Origin: Microlunatus elymi
GTDB lineage: Bacteria > Actinomycetota > Actinomycetes > Propionibacteriales > Propionibacteriaceae
Assembly (NCBI RefSeq): GCF_007362775.1
Contig: NZ_CP041692.1
Coordinates: forward strand, 3,224,001-3,288,000
Direction: 5' to 3'
DNA length: 64,000 nucleotides
Shown: in pieces, positions 21,964-31,063 of the stretch
Layout of the letters: every line of letters begins with the position of its first letter
How positions within the stretch are numbered: the first letter of the stretch is position 1
The notes under the pieces: model-generated
Databases searched by the model: none
What the model was told of the DNA's origin: nothing
The model's input: the letters and a program-made list of their open reading frames with translations, nothing else
Made by a program: the position numbers and the translations under genes

Positions 21964-22720
21964 CTTTGAGCTGTTGCGGAGTCCAGCCGGCGGCATCGGC
22001 CTGGAGCTGATTGTTGATGAAGATGGTCGGCGTGCCCTGGACGCCGTCGTTGTTGGCCGCGGTGGCCGCCGACTGCATCCAGGATTGGTACTTCATGTTG
22101 TTCACCGCGGAGATGAAGTTGTCGCTCGGGTTGCCGACCTGCTTGGCCAGATCGATCAGCTGTTCGTTGGTCCAGGCCTTGCCGTAGTTCTGCCACAGCC
22201 CGAGGTAGAACGCCTCACCGAAACCGTCCGCCGCAGCCGCGGCCATCGCGTTGCCGGAGCGCAGCGAGCCCTGCTGGCCGTCCTCGTTGTCGATCACCGT
22301 CAGCACGAACAACTCGATCTTGACCTGGCCCTTCTTCTGCAGGTCCAGGATGGTGTCGCCGAGGTTGTCCTCGAACTCCGCGCAGTGCGGGCAGCGGAAG
22401 TCCTCGTACAGCTTCAGCGTGACCGGCGCGTTCTTGTCGCCGAGCACGATCGGCTTGCCGTCGGTGACAGTCACCTTGCCCCAGGTCGGGACGTCGCCGC
22501 TGGCCGTCTTCGGCTTGCCGAAGTTGGTCGCGTAGCCGATGCCGACCCCGATCACCGCGACCACGACGACGACCACCAGCACCAGCAGCCCCAGCCGCCG
22601 CCGCTTGGACTGCCGGGCCTTCTGCTCGGCGGCGAGCCGGGCCCGCTCCCTGGCGTTGCTGCCGTCCTGCTTCGGCGGCTTGTTCTTGCCGCCGTTGGAG
22701 CGGTTGGCGTCGGAGCTCAT
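21938..22720 (-). CDS. DsbA-like membrane-anchored thioredoxin-fold protein (first copy)
   Basis: A 260-residue protein with a charged N-terminal tail (Lys/Arg-rich to residue 42), one transmembrane helix (about 43-63) and an external DsbA domain with CPHC (Cys110-Cys113) in YEDFRCPHCAEFEDNLG and the cis-Pro loop GTPTIFINNQ. It probably acts as a thiol oxidase for exported proteins. Its ATG overlaps the stop of the MauE/DoxX gene by 4 bp, so the membrane partner and both DsbA proteins form one unit downstream of trpA. MauE-type proteins are thought to support disulphide chemistry, which fits. Confidence 0.92.
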   Translation of the reverse strand: MSSDANRSNGGKNKPPKQDGSNARERARLAAEQKARQSKRRRLGLLVLVVVVVVAVIGVGIGYATNFGKPKTASGDVPTWGKVTVTDGKPIVLGDKNAPVTLKLYEDFRCPHCAEFEDNLGDTILDLQKKGQVKIELFVLTVIDNEDGQQGSLRSGNAMAAAAADGFGEAFYLGLWQNYGKAWTNEQLIDLAKQVGNPSDNFISAVNNMKYQSWMQSAATAANNDGVQGTPTIFINNQLQADAAGWTPQQLKDAVNKADR

Positions 22721-23253
22721 GCATTCCCCTCGTCGTCGTCAAATCCGCCGGTCACGGCGTCCAGGCTGAGGCGGGTCCGTGGCTGCAGGAACAGCCAGGC
22801 GGCACCGGCCAGGAAAATAATGTCGCGGATCAGGTCCGGAAGGTAGCTGGTCGCTCCCGGAGCGACCTGCCCGCCGGCACTGAAGCACCCGCAGTCGATG
22901 CTGAGCCCGCGGGCCCAGGCCTGGATCAGTCCGACCACGAACGCCAGCTGGAGCAGGAAACTCAACGCGGCCGCCCATCGGGTGAACAGGCCCGAGATCA
23001 GGACCAGGCCGAGCAGCACCTCCAGGTACGGCAGTGCCCAGCCGACGATCTGCGCCAGCGTGTCGGGGAGCAGTTCGTAGGCCCGAACGGCCGCCACCGA
23101 CTGGGCCGGATCTCCGATCTTCAGCACGCCGGCGACGATCCACACCACCCCCAGACCGACCCGGACGACCGTACGCGCCCACGGGAGCACGACGGCCCAG
23201 TTCACCGCACGGCGGCGTGGTTCGGGCGCGGACTGGCTGGCTGACTCGGACAT
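22717..23253 (-). CDS. MauE/DoxX-family redox membrane protein
   Basis: A 178-residue four-helix membrane protein. The family is recognised from VRVGLGVVWIVAGVLKIGDP in the first helix and the DCGCFSAGGQ loop, whose cysteine pair is the hallmark of MauE-like proteins that work with thiol-disulphide exchange proteins. It is followed with a 4-bp overlap by a DsbA-like gene, which supports a role as membrane electron acceptor or donor for it. Start ATG 23253; it lies 20 bp after the trpA stop, so it is probably in the trp transcription unit. Confidence 0.85.
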   Translation of the reverse strand: MSESASQSAPEPRRRAVNWAVVLPWARTVVRVGLGVVWIVAGVLKIGDPAQSVAAVRAYELLPDTLAQIVGWALPYLEVLLGLVLISGLFTRWAAALSFLLQLAFVVGLIQAWARGLSIDCGCFSAGGQVAPGATSYLPDLIRDIIFLAGAAWLFLQPRTRLSLDAVTGGFDDDEGNA

Positions 23254-23273
23254 CGCAGGCTCAACCTCACAGC

Positions 23274-24157
23274 TCAGACAGAAGTTCCCGCCGGCGACAC
23301 CAAACCGGATCGGATTCCGGTTGCCAGCTCGGACACCACCGTACGAAGGCCGGTCAAGTCGTCCGGTCGGCCGGCCTCGTCGGCCTCGATCAGCCGGCTG
23401 ACCAGGGCCGATCCGACGATCGCGGCGTCGGCGTAGGCGCTGATCTCGGCTGCCTGGGCGCCGGTGGAGACGCCGAGCCCGACGCCGATCCGGGCGCTCG
23501 GCACCGCGGTCCGGATCCGCTGCACCAGCGTCGGCGCGGCCGACGAAGTCTGCGCACGAGCACCGGTGACGCCCATCAGCGAGGTCGCATACACCCAGCC
23601 GCGGCAGGCGGCCAGGGTCTCGGCCAGCCGCCGGTCCGACGAACTCGGCGCCACCAGGAAGACCCGGTCCAGGCCGTGCGCGTCGGACGCGGCGAACCAG
23701 TCCTCGGCCTCGTCCGGGGTCAGGTCCGGCGTGATCAGGCCCGCGCCGCCGGCCGCCGCCAGGTCCCGGGCGAACGCGTCCGGACCGTAGCGCTCGACCA
23801 GATTCCAATAGATCATCACCACGGCGGCGGTGCCGGTCTCGGCCACCGCCTCGACCGCGGAGAACACGTCCCGGACCCGGACGCCGCGTTCCAGCGCACG
23901 GGTGGCGGCCTTCTGGATGGTCGGGCCGTCCATCACCGGATCGCTGTACGGCATGCCGATCTCGACCAGGTCGACGCCCTCGTACTCCTTCTCCCCCGAC
24001 GGGCCGACGCCGCACAGGGCGCGCATCGCCGCCAGCGATCCGGGCACGCTCGGGTAGCCGACGGGCAGATAGCCGACCAGGGCGCCACGGCCATCGGCTT
24101 TCGCCGCGGAGAAGATCTTGCCGCTGATGCCTTCGTCGAATCGATCCTCGTGCGCGC

Positions 24158-24161
<4 letters not shown>
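23274..24161 (-). CDS. trpA: Tryptophan synthase alpha subunit
   Basis: Cleaves indole-3-glycerol phosphate to indole, which is channelled to TrpB. The 295-residue product carries the catalytic Glu and Asp in [21 protein letters not shown] (first 20 of which span the motif), the phosphate-binding [15 protein letters not shown] and the [10 protein letters not shown] segment. The usual FVTAGDP-like strand reads [11 protein letters not shown], a variant seen in actinobacteria. Start is GTG 24161, overlapping the trpB stop by 4 bp. It is somewhat longer than most TrpA, mainly at the N-terminus and in the first loop. Confidence 0.95.
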
Positions 24162-25423
<1,262 letters not shown>

Positions 25424-25430
25424 GATCTTT

Positions 25431-25500
25431 TCCTTACCTGCAAGGGATTGACGGGGAGGACGAGGTCACGCGACGAGCCTCACCATCGACGCAGGAAGGA
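25431..25500 (-). promoter_or_regulatory. Hairpin that hides the trpB ribosome site
   Basis: On the minus strand, TCCTTCCTGC (25500-25491) is complementary to GCAGGTAAGGA (25441-25431) with one bulged T. The 3' arm contains the trpB Shine-Dalgarno AAGGA; the 5' arm lies inside the 19-codon ORF a few bases before its Trp and stop codons. The loop is 49 nt. This is the arrangement expected of translational attenuation; function is inference. Confidence 0.5.
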
Positions 25501-25539
25501 ACCCGCAGCCGTCGTGATCACCGGTGCGTCCATGATCAT
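25480..25539 (-). CDS. Putative 19-residue ORF ending in Trp-stop between trpC and trpB
   Basis: The ORF reads [19 protein letters not shown] followed by TGA. Its ATG overlaps the trpC stop as ATGA, so it would be translated by coupling. It has one Trp codon, the last sense codon. In Streptomyces a small gene (trpX/trpM) occupies the same position, but I see no sequence similarity to it. Ribosomes stalled at the Trp codon would cover the 5' arm of the hairpin that hides the trpB ribosome site. The ORF is too short to judge by composition, and could be chance; position and hairpin are the support. Confidence 0.45.
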
Positions 25540-26339
25540 CGATGGGCCAGCGCCGGGTGGGCACCGGCCGAGACCAGGTCGGCCACGCCCAGGCGCGGAT
25601 CACGTCCGGTCACCAGGGCCTCGCCGACCAGCACCACGTCGGCACCGCTGCGGGCCAGCTCGATCACGTCATGCGGACCCTTCACCCCGGACTCGGCAAC
25701 CTTGACGATGCCGTCGGGGATCCGCGGGGCCAGCCGGGCGAAGGTGCCCGGATCGACCTCGAGGGTCTGCAGGTTGCGGGCGTTCACGCCGATCAGCTTG
25801 GCGCCGGCGGCGACGGCCCGGTCGATCTCCTCTTCGGTGTGGGTTTCCACCAGCGGCGTCAGCCCGATCGACTCGGCCCGCTCGATCAGCGACACCAGCT
25901 CGAAGTCGCTCAGCGCGGCCACGATCAGCAGCGCGAGATCCGCGCCGTTGGCCCGGGCCTCGAACAGTTGGTACGCGGTGACGATGAAGTCCTTGCGGAG
26001 CACCGGGATGTCGACCGCCATCCGGACGTTGACCAGGTCCTCCAGGGATCCGCCGAACCGGCGCCGCTCGGTCAGCACCGAGATCGCCGCAGCGCCGCCG
26101 GAGGCGTACGCCGCCGCCAGCGCGGCCGGATCGGGGATGTCGGCCAGTGCGCCCTTGCTCGGGCTGGACCGCTTGACCTCGGCGATCACCGAGACGCCGG
26201 GCGCGCGGAACCGCGGCATCGGATCCAGCGCCGGGTCGACGTGCAGCACGCGCTCCTTCAGCCGGTCAAGGCTGACCGCGGCTTGGCGGTCGGCAAGGTC
26301 CTGCCGTACGCCGTCGACGATCGTGTCGAGAACGCCCAT
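25536..26339 (-). CDS. trpC: Indole-3-glycerol phosphate synthase
   Basis: Closes the indole ring in tryptophan biosynthesis. The 267-residue barrel has [15 protein letters not shown] with the catalytic Lys, the [18 protein letters not shown] strand, the [14 protein letters not shown] segment and the phosphate-binding [10 protein letters not shown] and [11 protein letters not shown]. Length is normal for the monofunctional enzyme; there is no fused TrpF. Start ATG 26339. The stop codon TGA overlaps the ATG of a 19-codon ORF. It lies 48 bp after the HGxxPAAW gene in the hisI-trpE-...-trpBA operon. Confidence 0.96.
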
Positions 26340-26387
26340 GACCGATTCCCACTCCCTCTTGGCGAACTGGCGCCGTAGCCGGGCCGA

Positions 26388-26699
26388 CTACCGCTTCTTC
26401 TTCTCGTAGATCCCGAAACCCAGGGCCTGCATGATCAGACCCGCGGCGATGCCGATGACGCAGATCGCCCCGCCGATCACGAACAGCGCCCAGTTGGTCC
26501 GCATCACCAGGCCGATCGCGCCCACCAGGAAGCCCAGGAAGATGCAGATGGTCGCCGTCCACATCGCGCCGGTCTGACCGTGGTGCACATGCCGCATCGG
26601 CCGCGAGTCCAGCGGCTGCAGAGCCGGATTGGCGTGCCGCCCGGTCGACACCTCGGGCACCGTCGAGGTCTGCACCGTATCGGCCATCTCGTTCACCAT
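26388..26699 (-). CDS. HGxxPAAW-motif small membrane protein
   Basis: A 103-residue protein with two hydrophobic helices (MWTATICIFLGFLVGAIGLV and LFVIGGAICVIGIAAGLIM) and a basic end (YEKKKR). The segment HVHHGQTGAMWTA is a variant of the HGxxPAAW motif, in which Pro is Gly and Ala is Met. Members of this actinobacterial family are found next to trp genes, as here between the trp-associated membrane protein and trpC; their function is unknown. Start ATG 26699; ATG 26687 is possible. Confidence 0.8.
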   Translation of the reverse strand: MVNEMADTVQTSTVPEVSTGRHANPALQPLDSRPMRHVHHGQTGAMWTATICIFLGFLVGAIGLVMRTNWALFVIGGAICVIGIAAGLIMQALGFGIYEKKKR

Positions 26700-26776
26700 C
26701 CTGACTCCTGCACCCCTGCAATCGGATTGTCCTCAGGGTCATTCTGGCCCAGCGACTCGCGGCGCACCAATCGGGG

Positions 26777-27361
26777 TCAGTTGCCCTGCTTCGAATCCGG
26801 CGGAAGGGTCGGATCCTCACCCGCATCGATCGACTTCCAGACGGCTCCTGCGTCGATCTCCGCGTCCGGATCGGCGGGCAACAGAGTCCGCTGCTGTGCG
26901 GCGGCGCGTTCGAATCGGGACGCCCGCTGCGGCCAACGACCGGCCCGCAGCAGCACGATCACCGCCCCGGCCAGCACCAGCAGGCAGCCGACCGCGTACG
27001 CGATGCTGCCGCCGACCAACTGCAGGTGATAGGAGTCGGCCAGGGTGTGTTTGCGCAGCTCGGTGAAGACCTCGGCGGAGTCCGGACGTTGCAGCGGCAT
27101 GGTGATCACGCCGAGCAGAGCGATCAGGCCGACCAGCACCGCGACGATCCGCCGGCCGGTGGCCCGCAGCGCCAGCATCAGCAGGACGCCCGCCAGGATC
27201 GCCACCCCCAACGCCTGTGCCACCCCGCCGGTGATGTCGCTGCCGCTGAAGTGAACCAGCCCGTCGGCCGAGTACCACGGCACCGCGGCACCGGCGACCA
27301 CCGCGATCGCGCCGATGATCAGCAGAGCGAAGGCGATGGTCCGGCTGCGTTCGGAGGTCAC
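26777..27361 (-). CDS. Trp-biosynthesis-associated membrane protein (TIGR02234-like)
   Basis: A 194-residue membrane protein with about four helices and a charged C-terminal tail. Position directly after trpE and the layout (VAGAAVPWYSADG in the first external loop, then paired helices ending in GCLLVLAGAVIVLL) match the actinobacterial trp operon-associated family whose M. tuberculosis member is Rv1610. Function is not known; aromatic amino acid transport is sometimes suggested, without support here. ATG 27361 overlaps the trpE stop by 4 bp. Confidence 0.85.
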   Translation of the reverse strand: MTSERSRTIAFALLIIGAIAVVAGAAVPWYSADGLVHFSGSDITGGVAQALGVAILAGVLLMLALRATGRRIVAVLVGLIALLGVITMPLQRPDSAEVFTELRKHTLADSYHLQLVGGSIAYAVGCLLVLAGAVIVLLRAGRWPQRASRFERAAAQQRTLLPADPDAEIDAGAVWKSIDAGEDPTLPPDSKQGN

Positions 27362-28905
27362 CGCGGCGAGCCCTCCTCCGAGCCGACCGGAGTGAAGGTT
27401 TCGGCGACCGAGATCGCCCGGATCACCGCGGCCGCCTTGTTCTGCGACTCCTGGTCCTCCAGCAGCGGGACCGAATCGGCGACGATCCCGCCGCCGGCCT
27501 GGACGTAGCCGATGCCGTTCCGCAGCACGGCGGTCCGGATGGCGATCGCCGCGTCGCCGTCGCCGGCGAAGTCGAGATAGCCGACCACACCTCCGTACAG
27601 GCCTCGGCGGGACACCTCGAGCTTGTCGATGATCTCCATCGCCCGCACCTTCGGCGCCCCGGACAGGGTGCCGGCCGGGAAGGCGGCCAAGATCACGTCC
27701 AGCGCGGATCGGCCGTCGGCGATCTCGCCGACCACGGTCGACTCCAGATGCATGATGTGGCTGTAACGCCGTACCTCGGCGAATTCGATCACCTCGACGC
27801 TGCCCGGCCGGCAGACCCGACCAAGATCATTCCGGCCAAGATCAACAAGCATCAGGTGCTCGGCACGTTCCTTCTCGTCGGAACGCAACTCTGATTCCAA
27901 AGCCTGATCTTCGCGGTCGTCGGCGCCGCGCGGTTTGGAGCCGGCGATCGGATGGGTCAGCGCGGTCCTGCCCTTCACGGTGACCAACGCTTCCGGGCTG
28001 GAGCCGACGATGTCGAAGCCGTCCATCCGCAGCAGATACATGTACGGGGACGGGTTGCTCAGCCGCAACACCCGGTAGACGTCCAGCGCATCGGCGGAGG
28101 TCTCCACCTCGAACCGCTGGCTGACCACGATCTGGAACGCCTCGCCGGCCTCGATCTCGGCCACCGCCGCCCGGACCGCGTCCTGGTACTCGTCGGGGGT
28201 CCGCTGCCGGCGGATCGGCAGCCGATGATCCTGGTCGGCGAGCACCGCGGTCGGCGGGGTCGGCCGGCCGAGCGCCCGGGTCATCGCCTGCACCCGCTCG
28301 ACCGCGTCCGCGTACGCCTCGTCGACGCGTTCGTCGGTGTCGTCGTAGTTGATCGCGTTGGCGATCAGCCAGACCTCTCCGGTTTCATGATCGACAACGG
28401 CGACGTCGCTGGCCAGCATGAAGCCCAGCTCGGGGATGTGAAGATCGTCGTGGTTGGTGTCCGGCAGCACCTCGACCCGGCGGACCGCGTCGTAGGAGAG
28501 GTAGCCGACCATGCCGGACGTGAAGGACGGCAGGCCGTCGATCCGCGGCGTGTGCAGCCGCTCCAGGGTGGTTCGCAGTGCCTCAACCGGGTCGCCGCCG
28601 CTGGGCAGGCCGACCGGCGGGTTGCCGGTCCAGAACGCCTCGCCGTTGATTTCGCTCAGGGTGGCCACCGCGCGGACCCCGATGAAGGAGTAGCGGGCCC
28701 AGACGCCGTTGTGCTCGGCCGACTCCAGCAGATAACTGCCCGTCCGGCCGCCGGTCAACTTGAGATACAGCCCGACGGCGGTCTCCGCGTCGGCCAGCAC
28801 GCGGCGATAGACCGGGACCACCCGCCGATCGGCCGCCAGCGTACGGAATTCGGCCAGGCTCGGCGTGATGTTGCACGCTCGTACGGCAGTGGAACCGACA
28901 CTCAT
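27358..28905 (-). CDS. trpE: Anthranilate synthase component I
   Basis: Makes anthranilate from chorismate with glutamine-derived ammonia; the first committed step to tryptophan. The 515-residue product has the Trp feedback-binding LLES motif at residues 59-62 and the chorismate-binding catalytic core: [53 protein letters not shown] and [18 protein letters not shown]. TrpG is not in this window. It follows hisI with a 4-bp overlap and heads the trp genes, so his and trp synthesis share a transcript. No leader peptide rich in Trp precedes it; the only candidate Trp-sensing ORF is before trpB. Confidence 0.97.
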
Positions 28906-29291
28906 CGCTCGTCCCCGCTCAGCAGCACCCGGTCATCGAAGCAGGTCCGGGCACCGGTGTGGCAGGCAGGTCCGGTCTGATCGACCTTGACCAGCAGGGT
29001 GTCCCCGTCGCAGTCCAGCCGCACCTCGCGCACCGCCTGCCCGTGGCCGCTGGTCTCCCCCTTCACCCAGTAGGACTGCCGGCTGCGCGACCAGAAGGTG
29101 GTCCGGCCGGTGGTCAGGGTGCGGTGCAACGCGACGTCGTCCATCCAGCCGACCATCAGCACCTCACCGGTGTCGTACTGCTGGATCACCGCGGCGACCA
29201 GGCCGGCGGAGTCGCGCTTCAGTCGGGCGGCGATCGTCGGGTCGAGTTCACCCGCGGCCCGGGTGTCTTCGGCTGCATTCACGCCGACCAT
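28902..29291 (-). CDS. hisI: Phosphoribosyl-AMP cyclohydrolase
   Basis: Zinc enzyme that opens the purine ring of PR-AMP, the third step of histidine synthesis. The 129-residue monofunctional form has [14 protein letters not shown], the [17 protein letters not shown] segment and the metal ligands in [12 protein letters not shown] and [11 protein letters not shown]. There is no fused HisE domain. Start ATG 29291 ([10 protein letters not shown]) follows a GGGAG at good spacing. It is the first gene of the hisI-trp operon; 73 bp separate it from a divergent gene, so both promoters lie there. Confidence 0.95.
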
Positions 29292-29364
29292 TCTCTCCCG
29301 GACGTTGATGGCGATGCGAACCGTGTCCAGAGTGACCGGGCGTATTCGTCTAGCATCTGCGGTT

Positions 29365-30024
29365 ATGAGCTTTGCCAAGGACGAGCGCGCCAATTTGTGC
29401 GACCTGCTCTCCGAGGTCGGTCCCGATGCGCCGACCCTGTGCGGCGACTGGACCGCCCACGACCTGGCCGCACATCTGTGGATCCGGGAGACCGACCCGG
29501 TCGGCGCGCCGGGGATCCTGGCCAAACCGCTGGCCGGGCTGACCGAGCGGCGGATGGCCGAGGCGAAGTCCCGGTGGTCTTACGAGGAACTCGTCGATCG
29601 GGTCCGCAAGGGGCCGGCCCGATTCTCGGTGTTCGCACTGCCGGGGGTGGACGAGCCGGCGAACACCACCGAGTTCTTCGTCCATCACGAGGATGTACGG
29701 CGAGCCGGCGGGCAGCCGCTGGGGCCGCGTGATCTCGGCGAGGACGTCGAGGAGTGGATGTGGCGGCGGCTGAAGCTGCTCGGCCGCGCGTTCTTCCGCC
29801 GGGCCAAGGTCGGGGTGGTACTGGAACGGGTACCGGCGACGGTCGAACCGGGCAGCGATCCGGAAATCATCCGGGCCCAAGGCGGCAACCCGATCGTCAC
29901 CGTGGTGGGCAAGCCGAGCGAGCTGGTGGTCTTCGCCAACGGCCGGACCCAGGTCGCCGACGTCAAGCTGGTCGGCGAGCAGGAGGCGATCGACGCGCTG
30001 CTGGACAGCGATCTGTCGGCCTGA
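29365..30024 (+). CDS. TIGR03085 family metal-binding protein
   Basis: A 219-residue member of the DinB/maleylpyruvate-isomerase-like superfamily that is restricted to actinobacteria. The N-terminal helix bundle has [32 protein letters not shown], whose His residues belong to the presumed metal site with the later [14 protein letters not shown]. Some superfamily members use mycothiol; the activity of this group is unknown. Start ATG 29365. It diverges from hisI and converges on a secreted protein; the two stop regions are duplicated copies of TCGGCCTGATTCA 21 bp apart. Confidence 0.85.
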
Positions 30025-30049
30025 TTCACTTTCAGTTCGGCCTGATTCA
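30016..30049. repeat. 13-bp direct repeat at two convergent stop codons
   Basis: TCGGCCTGATTCA occurs at 30016-30028 and 30037-30049, period 21 bp. The first copy supplies the stop of the TIGR03085 gene; the second covers the stop of the minus-strand gene at 30047. Confidence 0.85.
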
Positions 30050-31063
30050 GCCGTCGACCACGACCTGCAACTCGCCGATCCGCAGCATCCGGGTACGCGT
30101 CCCGGTGACCGCCTCGTCACCCTGCAGGACCGGGTTCTTGCCGTCGTCGACCCGGTAGTGAATCGACCATCGGGTGGTCATCGAGACCCGATAGTTGCCG
30201 GTCTTCTCGTACACGTGACCGCAGGTCGGTGATGGTGTCGCGGGTTTCATCCCGCGGTGCCACGGCGTACCCATCGAGGAACAGGCGAACGGCTTCCCGT
30301 CACCGGGATCGATACTCAAGCCGGTCGGCCGCAATGACAGCGAAACCGTCATGCCGGCCGCAGTCTTGGTGACCCGTTTGGCCTGCTGGTCGCCGCCGAC
30401 TGCCCAGAACCACAACGGATAACCGACCGCGGAGTCCAGCGGCAGTCCCGTCACCTCACTGCGTACATGATGAACGGAATGGTCCGGCCCGACCCCCGGC
30501 GCCGGCGCATCGAACGTGAGCGAAGCCTTGACCTGTTGGTAAACCTGCTGTGGTGTCAGTCGCGGCTTCGCAGCCTTCTGTGCCCCGCCACCTTGGCCGA
30601 AGTCCCCGACCACGCAATCCGCGTTGTCGGCGCTGTAGATCACCTGGCAACCCGCGGCATCGAACAGCGCCTGCCCGGCAGCTATCTGCGCCTGCACATG
30701 CCCGCTCTGCAACGCCTTCGTAAGCTGCAGCCCCAACTCGTCCAAGGATGGACCCGTAGGTTGACTCTGGCCGTTGGCGACGGGGCCATGGTGGGTCCTG
30801 GAACTACCGGAGGTCTCAGCATTGCCGCTGTTGTTCGGAGGCGCCTGCTTCTGGTCCTTGTTGCCGGCGTCGGGCAGTGGGTCTTTCTCAGAACCATTCG
30901 TGCTGGTGGACTGATCAGCACTTGCCGTGACATGGCCGCCGGACACCAGGTTGTCTTTCATTACCTTCTGCGTGCCGGCCTCAGCTGCTGCCGGTCCCCA
31001 CAGAACCAACAATCCTGTCGCCACCAAGGTCACAGCGACTCTGCCTATCCCCCGAACGTGCAT
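30047..31063 (-). CDS. Secreted protein of actinobacterial PKD-like type
   Basis: A 338-residue exported protein. A signal peptide (GIGRVAVTLVATGLLVLWG, likely cut after AEA) is followed by a low-complexity Ser/Asn/Lys region to about residue 120, then a folded region with LTPQQVYQQVKASLTFDAPAPGVGP, GYPLWFWAVGG and PTCGHVYEKTGNYRVSMTTRW. The last part, with paired cysteines (PFACSSMGTP ... PTCGHVY), matches proteins that are often labelled ATP/GTP-binding in Streptomyces, a label not supported by any motif here. The start, ATG 31063, overlaps the upstream lipoprotein gene by 19 bp. Role unknown; probably surface or envelope associated. Confidence 0.75.
   Translation of the reverse strand: MHVRGIGRVAVTLVATGLLVLWGPAAAEAGTQKVMKDNLVSGGHVTASADQSTSTNGSEKDPLPDAGNKDQKQAPPNNSGNAETSGSSRTHHGPVANGQSQPTGPSLDELGLQLTKALQSGHVQAQIAAGQALFDAAGCQVIYSADNADCVVGDFGQGGGAQKAAKPRLTPQQVYQQVKASLTFDAPAPGVGPDHSVHHVRSEVTGLPLDSAVGYPLWFWAVGGDQQAKRVTKTAAGMTVSLSLRPTGLSIDPGDGKPFACSSMGTPWHRGMKPATPSPTCGHVYEKTGNYRVSMTTRWSIHYRVDDGKNPVLQGDEAVTGTRTRMLRIGELQVVVDG

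What the first reader, a model, noticed from the sequence alone, without database searches (positions are those of the whole stretch)
25424..25539. Candidate Trp-sensing translational attenuator between trpC and trpB
Seen: a 19-codon ORF, coupled to trpC by an ATGA overlap, ends Arg-Arg-Trp-stop. Ten bases inside it (25500-25491) can pair with 25441-25431, which hold the trpB Shine-Dalgarno, with one bulge. Known: ribosomes stalled on leader ORFs can free hidden ribosome sites (erm-type control), and Streptomyces has a small gene at this place (trpX/trpM). Inferred: when charged tRNA(Trp) is scarce, a ribosome stalled at the UGG covers the 5' arm and trpBA translation rises. A leader inside the operon acting on trpB alone would be unusual.
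Basis: partly seen in the sequence, partly recalled or inferred. Interest (0 to 1): 0.72.

Follow-up and report, generated by a model that had tools for sequence, protein, structure and literature searches.

The report
Tryptophan-codon leader before trpB genes
Between two tryptophan-making genes, many soil bacteria carry a tiny reading frame with the same unusual slow-codon/tryptophan-codon pair, often set against an RNA hairpin, which looks like an unrecognised switch that turns on the last steps of tryptophan synthesis when tryptophan runs short; this is predicted from sequence and untested.

Summary
The 19-codon ORF ending Arg-Arg-Trp-stop between trpC and trpB is real and not chance. The three nearest relatives all have a short ORF there that begins ATGATC and carries CGA-TGG (Arg-Trp). 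In a wider survey CGA-TGG lies in a short ORF, or in the last codons of trpC, in 97 of 291 distinct trpC-trpB gaps: 30/30 Streptomycetaceae (the C-terminus of TrpM), 43/75 of family f16 (Nocardiopsis/Actinomadura-like), 5/6 of one Nocardioidaceae genus, 5/20 of the window's genus, 0/30 of f17. The Arg codon is CGA in 100 of 117 Arg-Trp pairs, though CGA is 1.4-5.0% of Arg codons in trpC/trpB. A hairpin on or just after the UGG is strong in the Nocardiopsis-like loci, moderate in the other large groups, and not significant in the window's own clade. Shine-Dalgarno sequestration is marginal in the window (p=0.044), significant in one of three relatives, and at chance overall. Best explanation: a ribosome-stalling, Trp-tRNA-sensing attenuator of trpBA that works by blocking an adjacent RNA structure; translation or transcription is open. 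The listings of seven full-text searches showed no prior description.

The parts
25480..25539 (-). leader ORF, 19 aa, [19 protein letters not shown], start overlaps the trpC stop (ATGA)
   Evidence: sequence; short ORF starting ATGATC and carrying CGA-TGG in all three nearest relatives L083-L085
25483..25488 (-). CGA-TGG codon pair (Arg-Trp), the shared core
   Evidence: 97 of 291 distinct gaps, (shuffle expectations); CGA 100 of 117 Arg codons before Trp
25480..25482 (-). TGA stop directly after the Trp codon
25490..25501 (-). 5' arm of the outer stem (TTCCTTCCTGCG)
   Evidence: MFE fold; duplex p=0.044
25430..25442 (-). 3' arm of the outer stem (TGCAGG-T-AAGGAA), contains the trpB Shine-Dalgarno
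   Evidence: MFE fold; duplex p=0.044
25450..25487 (-). inner hairpin: GATGG (25487-25483) and GAGG (25481-25478) with CCTC (25459-25456) and CCGTC (25454-25450)
   Evidence: MFE fold; not significant alone (best stem p=0.18); a downstream partner sequence for GATGG also in L083, L084, L251-L255
25431..25435 (-). trpB Shine-Dalgarno AAGGA
   Evidence: sequence
25421..25423 (-). probable trpB start codon ATT (ATG at the corresponding place in L083)
25536..26339 (-). trpC, indole-3-glycerol phosphate synthase
   Evidence: NF001369, 413 bits
24158..25423 (-). trpB, tryptophan synthase beta (start assumed at ATT)
   Evidence: TIGR00263, 591 bits on the part 25408-24158

Best explanation
It is a ribosome-stalling leader (attenuator) inside the trp operon that adjusts trpBA expression to charged tRNA(Trp). 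Ribosomes coming off trpC start on the small ORF. CGA, read here only by the A34/inosine tRNA(Arg), is a slow codon and leaves a weakly paired tRNA in the P site, which makes the single following UGG unusually sensitive to lack of Trp-tRNA. A ribosome held with CGA in the P site and UGG in the A site covers the first base pairs of the RNA structure that begins on or just after the UGG, and in the window also the upstream arm that pairs with the trpB Shine-Dalgarno. The structure cannot form and trpBA is expressed. With enough Trp the ribosome moves on, terminates a few codons later and leaves, the structure forms, and trpBA is reduced. Shown here by computation: the ORF, the fixed CGA-TGG, the tRNA set of the window genome, and the hairpin and its position in the larger clades. 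Inferred: the stall, the Trp signal, the sign of the response, and whether the structure stops transcription or translation.
For: CGA-TGG in a short ORF or trpC tail in 97 of 291 distinct gaps; dinucleotide shuffles expect 1.3, 1.0 and 0.1 where 30 (f18), 44 (f16, one duplicate still counted in that run) and 4 in-ORF cases (window genus) are seen. CGA in 100 of 117 Arg-Trp pairs, while CGA is 1.4-5.0% of Arg codons in trpC/trpB of the same loci and 2-8% of the other Arg codons in the same ORFs. Leaders run from 10 to over 100 codons with only Arg-Trp in common across groups, and in L086 and L251-L255 the last codons of trpC hold the pair: codon-level rather than protein-level constraint. L204 (Streptomycetaceae) has the CGA-TGG ORF in the gap but that ORF does not match TrpM, and none was found elsewhere in its genome (150 of 461 candidates scored). 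The window genome's Arg anticodons are ACG, CCG, CCT, TCT, no TCG. CGA slows ribosomes in the Salmonella his leader assay (PMC4046918, passages). Downstream structure: mean z -2.08 in N (19 of 25 under -1), -1.51 in S (20 of 30), -0.73 in A (7 of 20), -0.84 in P (4 of 10), control -0.34 (16 of 84); in N 19 of 25 best stems start at the sixth nt after UGG and 13 of 25 are at p<=0.05; A hairpin 75.1% paired against 68.6% shuffled, 0/500, 6 pairs with changes on both sides.
Against: 15 of 20 genomes of the window's own genus lack it. In the window's own clade the hairpin is not significant (P1: 0 of 5 at p<=0.05; window z -0.04); in S only 2 of 30 and in A 5 of 20 single stems reach p<=0.05. Usually only one Trp codon, where the trp leaders surveyed earlier have two or three (PMC1262725 passages). 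No U-tract terminator in the window or in the N group (tail T 0.13 in 17 loci). The introduction of PMC5036795 says S. coelicolor trp genes are not negatively controlled by Trp, and a trpM deletion there was rescued in trans, which a purely cis element would not explain. The RNA structures of the four groups are not evidently homologous.
Confidence: 0.6

Rival explanations
1. One reading: purely translational, erm-like. A ribosome stalled at UGG opens a stem that otherwise hides the trpB Shine-Dalgarno.
For: The window MFE places AAGGA in a 12-bp stem whose other arm lies just before the CGA codon; duplex p=0.044 in the window and 0.002 in L084 with different arm sequences; predicted SD accessibility rises 0.34 to 0.50 in the window and 0.45 to 0.71 in L084 when the ribosome footprint is held open. 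The footprint region supplies over half of the SD pairing in 4 of 10 P loci and 6 of 20 A loci. A trpB starting at AUU would be especially dependent on ribosome access (inference).
Against: Not significant in L083 (p=0.55) and L085 (p=0.56); 6 of 84 loci at p<=0.05, about chance. In L083 the predicted SD accessibility falls, 0.75 to 0.46. Opening by more than 0.15 is predicted in 7 of 81 loci and closing in 5 of 81; over half of the SD pairing comes from the footprint in 0 of 25 N and 2 of 26 S loci.
Confidence: 0.3
2. The ORF encodes a small trans-acting protein, a short TrpM, and the Arg-Trp is a protein motif.
For: TrpM is an NCBIfam family (NF047334) whose model reaches the RW end; the trpM knockout phenotype is rescued in trans and TrpM binds PepA in pull-down and two-hybrid tests (PMC5036795, abstract and section 5).
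Against: Outside Streptomycetaceae many of the ORFs are 10-20 aa and across groups share only RW; five ORFs tested gave no TrpM match while a known-type TrpM in the same call did, and 9 of 11 genomes had none over the cut-off (150 candidates scored per genome); the synonymous codon is nearly fixed as CGA; in six loci the motif sits in the trpC tail.
Confidence: 0.1
3. The structure responds to ribosome supply or growth rate rather than to Trp: a slow CGA-UGG spot times a ribosome against the hairpin, as in attenuators that sense general translation.
For: S. coelicolor trpBA is reported to follow growth rate and phase and not feedback (title of Hu et al. 1999 in a reference list; introduction of PMC5036795); usually only one Trp codon.
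Against: The codon behind the fixed CGA is Trp, in front of Trp-synthesis genes, in 97 gaps; other codons behind CGA were not surveyed.
Confidence: 0.15
4. CGATGG is kept for another reason: as a hidden AUG start, a frameshift site, or a protein- or RNA-binding sequence.
For: cgAUGG contains AUG; in L083-L085 that frame ends within 6 nt of the trpB start, and the +1 frame ends shortly before the trpB start in the window and L083. A binding sequence is not excluded.
Against: Neither alternative frame keeps a fixed relation to trpB: the spacing from UGG to the trpB start takes all three values modulo 3 in each group (A 9/8/3, N 6/14/5, P 5/2/3, S 9/10/10), and the +1 or the AUG frame ends near the trpB start in 20 and 17 of 84 loci (which corrects start positions). 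The Arg-Trp frame stops within 39 nt of UGG in 80 of 84 loci, and as CGA TGG NNN stop in 19 of 25 N loci.
Confidence: 0.08

Closest known systems
Classical trp leader peptides of Corynebacterium and Streptomyces trp operons (attenuation)
   Same: short ORF with regulatory UGG codons, hairpins downstream, controls Trp genes
   Different: those lie upstream of the operon, have two or three UGG and a U-tract terminator with competing hairpins (PMC1262725 passages); this one is between trpC and trpB, has as a rule one UGG after a fixed CGA, and no U-tract in the window or N group
TrpM / TrpX (NF047334), Streptomyces small ORF between trpC and trpB
   Same: same place; the ORF carries the same CGA-TGG near its C-terminus in 30 of 30 sampled Streptomycetaceae gaps (TrpM-like by eye in all but L204) and is followed by structured RNA
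   Different: TrpM is a conserved protein described as acting in trans; the window ORF has 19 aa, no TrpM homology could be shown, and only Arg-Trp is shared
erm-type translational attenuators (ErmC/ErmB leaders)
   Same: ribosome stalled on a leader would open a stem that hides the next gene's Shine-Dalgarno
   Different: antibiotic-induced nascent-chain arrest there; here aminoacyl-tRNA shortage is proposed, and SD hiding is not conserved. erm facts recalled
Mycobacterial polycysteine uORFs (cysteine-responsive attenuators)
   Same: actinobacterial short ORF with codons of the operon's product near its end and no evident terminator (Cys leaders in PMC1262725 passages; the functional study is recalled, not read)
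   Different: runs of Cys codons before cys operons, not a Trp behind a rare Arg codon inside a trp operon
TnaC (tna operon)
   Same: leader with a single critical Trp, UGA stop, no intrinsic terminator needed
   Different: free Trp arrests TnaC at its stop codon and induces breakdown; here the distance from Trp to stop varies from 0 to many codons, so a peptide arrest at the stop is unlikely. TnaC facts recalled

Membership tests
Ribosome-mediated amino-acid attenuator (general kind) | short translatable ORF upstream of the regulated gene with codon(s) for the pathway's amino acid | tested here: met
   97 of 291 gaps; translation itself not shown
Ribosome-mediated amino-acid attenuator (general kind) | RNA structure placed so that a ribosome at those codons alters it | tested here: inconclusive
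   met in N and supported in A and S; for the window clade itself not significant (P1 0 of 5; SD stem p=0.044 in the window)
Ribosome-mediated amino-acid attenuator (general kind) | expression responds to the charged tRNA | not testable with these tools
   needs an experiment; published S. coelicolor work reports no negative control by Trp
Classical trp transcription attenuator | tandem UGG codons | tested here: not met
   one UGG after CGA in the window; nearby second Arg-Trp pair (RWRW) seen in L233, L235, L334 only among the ORFs printed
Classical trp transcription attenuator | GC-rich terminator with U-tract | tested here: not met
   none in window 25300-25900; N tails T 0.13 (17 loci); A tails T 0.32 (9 loci), the only hint
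erm-type translational attenuator | leader arm pairs with the Shine-Dalgarno region of the next gene | tested here: inconclusive
   window p=0.044, L084 p=0.002, L083 and L085 not significant, 6 of 84 overall
TrpM (NF047334) | match to the family model | tested here: not met
   no match found in the window genome (150 of 325 first-look candidates scored) nor in G003, G011, G012; the 19-aa ORF itself is below the scanning tool's minimum length
Rfam families | match to any of 4227 covariance models | tested here: not met
   0 matches at E<=1 for window 22000-31000; in 7 relatives only two hits, both below their gathering scores, read as chance

The most novel reading that the evidence does not exclude
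Actinomycetes carry an unrecognised class of intra-operonic attenuator built on a two-codon sensor, CGA-UGG, in which the I:A-wobble Arg tRNA in the P site amplifies the sensitivity of a single Trp codon. The sensor can sit in a free 10-20 codon leader, in the last codons of trpC, or at the end of a small protein. Streptomyces TrpM would be such a leader that grew into a protein, so part of the phenotype ascribed to the TrpM protein would come from the cis element.
Probability: 0.35. Interest if true: 0.85.

Novelty: new variant of a known kind. Interest (0 to 1): 0.72.

Why it matters
It would give trpBA in Streptomyces, Nocardiopsis- and Actinomadura-like bacteria and some Propionibacteriales its own Trp switch, separate from trpE control. 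It would explain why a tiny ORF sits between trpC and trpB, and recast TrpM, so far studied as a protein. A fixed rare codon in front of a single sensing codon would be a testable way for nature to build a sharp amino-acid sensor from two codons. It also opens a concrete question: is CGA-X used as a sensor pair in other leaders?

Tried and rejected
Overlapping AUG in cgAUGG or a +1 hungry-codon frameshift linking the leader to trpB: looked attractive in L083-L085 and in the window, but the spacing to trpB is free modulo 3 in all four groups (repeated with corrected trpB starts on 84 loci).

Universal Shine-Dalgarno sequestration: tested on 84 loci, at chance. Streptomyces trpB SD hairpins seen by eye were not tested further.

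Pairing of GATGG with a downstream [CT]C[AG]TC: above expectation in P (8 of 10, expected 4.6) and S (17 of 30, expected 9.5), at chance in A (7 of 20, 6.7) and N (5 of 25, 5.5).

Rho-type site: gaps with the leader are C-over-G (0.10-0.16, against 0.042 in 56 gaps without CGATGG). Suggestive only.

Known RNA families, promoters and terminators: nothing above threshold.

Single origin: the TrpB tree of 58 loci that I picked needs 8 gains or losses, at least 6 on well supported branches; deep forks are weak, so gain and loss cannot be told apart.

Caveats on sets: the 85 loci of the structure tests (A 20, N 25, P 10, S 30) were chosen because they hold CGATGG, so CGA counts are conditional; the count not chosen on codon is. 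One of the 85 (L219) had no trpB start by my rule, so later tests used 84. One search gave Arg codon usage with a frame slip in short loci; one search corrects it (1.4-5.0% instead of 1.6-5.8%); the slip also spoilt some trpB starts, and was mended from then on. In one search, 38 loci in the L002-L342 range had no trpC match, 26 of them distant TrpB-like matches that the same searches brought in, and 13 more were dropped (7 duplicates, 4 with gap out of range or no trpB anchor, 1 with N, 1 without a trpC stop). The first tally (292 gaps) held one f16 duplicate; its shuffle expectations were not rerun. L112 and L114 count as positives but sit in long gaps with another ORF and are probably chance (0.5 expected). 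Sampling: loci were taken mostly from the top of lists ranked by TrpB similarity to the window (f18: 30 of 61 genomes searched; f17: 30 of 35; f16: 75 distinct gaps, most from a search of 150 genomes; class: 30 loci plus picked regions of 393 genomes), so frequencies are those of the samples.

Full report
WHAT IS THERE. On the minus strand the order is trpE (28905-27358), a TIGR02234-like membrane protein (below that model's cut-off), an HGxxPAAW protein, trpC (26339-25536), the leader ORF (25539-25480), trpB and trpA (families; trpA by recognition only). The trpE start overlaps the ORF before it (28902; HisI-like by eye, untested), so there is no room for a leader right before trpE; I did not search the rest of the operon or genome for other Trp leaders. 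The leader overlaps the trpC stop as ATGA and reads [19 protein letters not shown].

CLOSE RELATIVES. The collection holds 20 genomes of the window genus, window included. The three with TrpB nearest the window (86-88% identical, 88-90%) all have a short ORF at this place: MIMVALHGRW* (L083), MIAELLRWRH* (L084), MITGQIAGIRTDLRRWRP* (L085). All four begin ATGATC and contain CGA TGG, although the rest has diverged and lengths differ. In L086, a further genome of the genus, trpC itself ends CAC CGA TGG TGA. The other 15 lack it.

WIDE SURVEY. In 291 distinct gaps, CGA-TGG lies in a short ORF or the last five codons of trpC in 97: f18, Streptomycetaceae by tree neighbours, 30 of 30; f16 43 of 75; genus g33 of f2 (near Nocardioides) 5 of 6, all in the trpC tail; window genus 5 of 20; named set 12 of 74 (ten Streptomycetaceae, Nocardiopsis coralli, Actinomadura sp.); other Propionibacteriaceae 2 of 28, probably chance; f17 0 of 30; other class members 0 of 28. 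Dinucleotide shuffles of the gaps give 1.3, 1.0 and 0.1 for f18, f16 and the window genus. In Streptomycetaceae the pair lies near the C-terminus of TrpM (...EPGQVNGRRWQ...). In f16 most ORFs fall into two styles: M..EPLRERWRAYP.. (A, Actinomadura-like) and ..RRW[LRPS]*, in 19 of 25 stopping one codon after Trp (N, Nocardiopsis-like).

THE RARE CODON. Among all Arg-Trp pairs in such ORFs or trpC tails, found without regard to codon, CGA accounts for 100 of 117. CGA is 1.4-5.0% of Arg codons in trpC and trpB of the same loci (one search had a frame slip) and 2-8% of the other Arg codons of the same small ORFs; at the other Arg positions of TrpM the codons are mainly CGC and CGG (a set chosen on CGATGG). 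Protein function does not by itself fix a synonymous codon. The window genome has tRNA(Arg) anticodons ACG, CCG, CCT and TCT and no TCG among the 45 tRNA places found, so CGA must be read by the ACG (inosine) tRNA through I:A wobble. In the Salmonella his leader assay all Arg-Arg pairs with CGA, AGA or AGG gave high de-attenuation (PMC4046918, passages), and in yeast CGA-first pairs stall ribosomes by disturbing the A site (review PMC7829197, passages). That bacterial CGA-UGG does the same is my inference.

THE PROTEIN CAN GO, THE CODONS STAY. L204 is a Streptomycetaceae locus with a 33-aa ORF ending GGRWRRG at this place: it has CGA-TGG but no TrpM match; a genome search found none elsewhere either, scoring 150 of 461 candidates.

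THE STRUCTURE. In N loci the best stem starts at the sixth nt after UGG in 19 of 25, which is the G of the stop codon where a stop stands there, with different base pairs in different species (GGGAACCC/GGGTTCCC, GGGAGTCC/GGACTCCC, GGGGGCC/GGCCCCC, GGCGGTCC/GGACCGCC); 13 of 25 beat shuffles at p<=0.05 and mean folding z is -2.08. In A loci a hairpin starts about 4 nt after UGG; on alignment A1 75.1% of cells pair against 68.6% in shuffles, 0 of 500 as high, covariation score 0.206 against 0.145, 7 of 500 as high (these are not probabilities, since relatedness is not kept), and sliding the partner by one lowers it; single loci reach p<=0.05 in 5 of 20 and mean z is only -0.73. Streptomycetaceae: mean z -1.51, single stems p<=0.05 in 2 of 30. 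Genus g33: the MFE stem includes GATGG itself in five of five, 1 of 5 significant. Window clade with L086: 0 of 5. Control windows in trpC: mean z -0.34. A ribosome with UGG in its A site (about 12 nt protected downstream, textbook value, recalled) would cover the start of these stems.

THE SHINE-DALGARNO ARM. In the window the SD is in the outer stem (p=0.044) and L084 has an equivalent stem with other letters (p=0.002); L083 and L085 do not reach significance, and over 84 loci 6 are at p<=0.05. Holding the ribosome footprint open raises predicted SD accessibility by more than 0.15 in 7 of 81 loci and lowers it in 5. I therefore keep SD release as a possible local mechanism, not as the family's.

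HOW IT MOST LIKELY WORKS. Trp shortage holds the ribosome at CGA|UGG; this blocks the adjacent structure; trpBA rises. Transcription or translation is open: A hairpins have somewhat T-rich tails (0.32, 9 loci), N hairpins do not (0.13, 17 loci), and the gaps are C-over-G rich as Rho sites are.

AGAINST. Patchy distribution; as a rule a single Trp codon; no U-tract; weak structure in the window's own clade; the statement that S. coelicolor trp genes are not negatively controlled by Trp and the title of Hu et al. 1999; rescue of a trpM deletion in trans. The last suggests that TrpM has a protein function as well, at least in Streptomyces.

PRIOR ART. The listings of searches turned up TrpM papers (PMC5036795: outline, two sections, passages; PMC7042404: abstract, passages), the 2005 survey of actinobacterial attenuators (PMC1262725: passages; no trpX; nothing seen between trpC and trpB) and the S. 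lividans reannotation (PMC8079986: passages; two trpL, whose places I did not see in full). Nothing I saw describes a Trp leader between trpC and trpB or the CGA-UGG pair. Most subscription papers are not in the library.

Noticed in passing
window 25423-25421 (-): trpB has no ATG, GTG or TTG start before its conserved N-terminus: between the in-frame TGA (25468-25466) and LPDQTGHFG the best start-like codon by spacing from the AAGGA Shine-Dalgarno is ATT, where L083 has ATG (ATC lies one codon upstream). Either a rare AUU start or a base error in the assembly.
   Followed up: partly
L112 and L114 (Propionibacteriaceae genus g18), between trpC and trpB: A phosphatase-like ORF (HC..G.GRS motif, by eye) lies in a gap of about 760-800 nt between trpC and trpB; L116 (with an N run) and L120 (no trpC match) show parts of a similar ORF.
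   Followed up: no
L029, L037, L040, L043 just upstream of trpB: The trpB Shine-Dalgarno (GTGAGG) can pair with a CCCACGGCGA block a little upstream in these Streptomyces; seen by eye, untested.
   Followed up: no
L233, L235, L334: Two Arg-Trp pairs in a row in the leader (CGATGGCGATGG, or AGATGGCGATGG in L235).
   Followed up: no
L251-L255 and L256 (genus g33 of f2): trpC ends QHRW* in five genomes and QHRG* in the sixth: a natural loss or gain of the Trp codon among close relatives, useful for an experiment.
   Followed up: partly
window 27361-26777 and 26699-26388 (-): Two small genes of the operon, a TIGR02234-like membrane protein (35.7 bits, cut-off 71) and an HGxxPAAW protein (NF041681), between trpE and trpC; functions unknown to me.
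   Followed up: no
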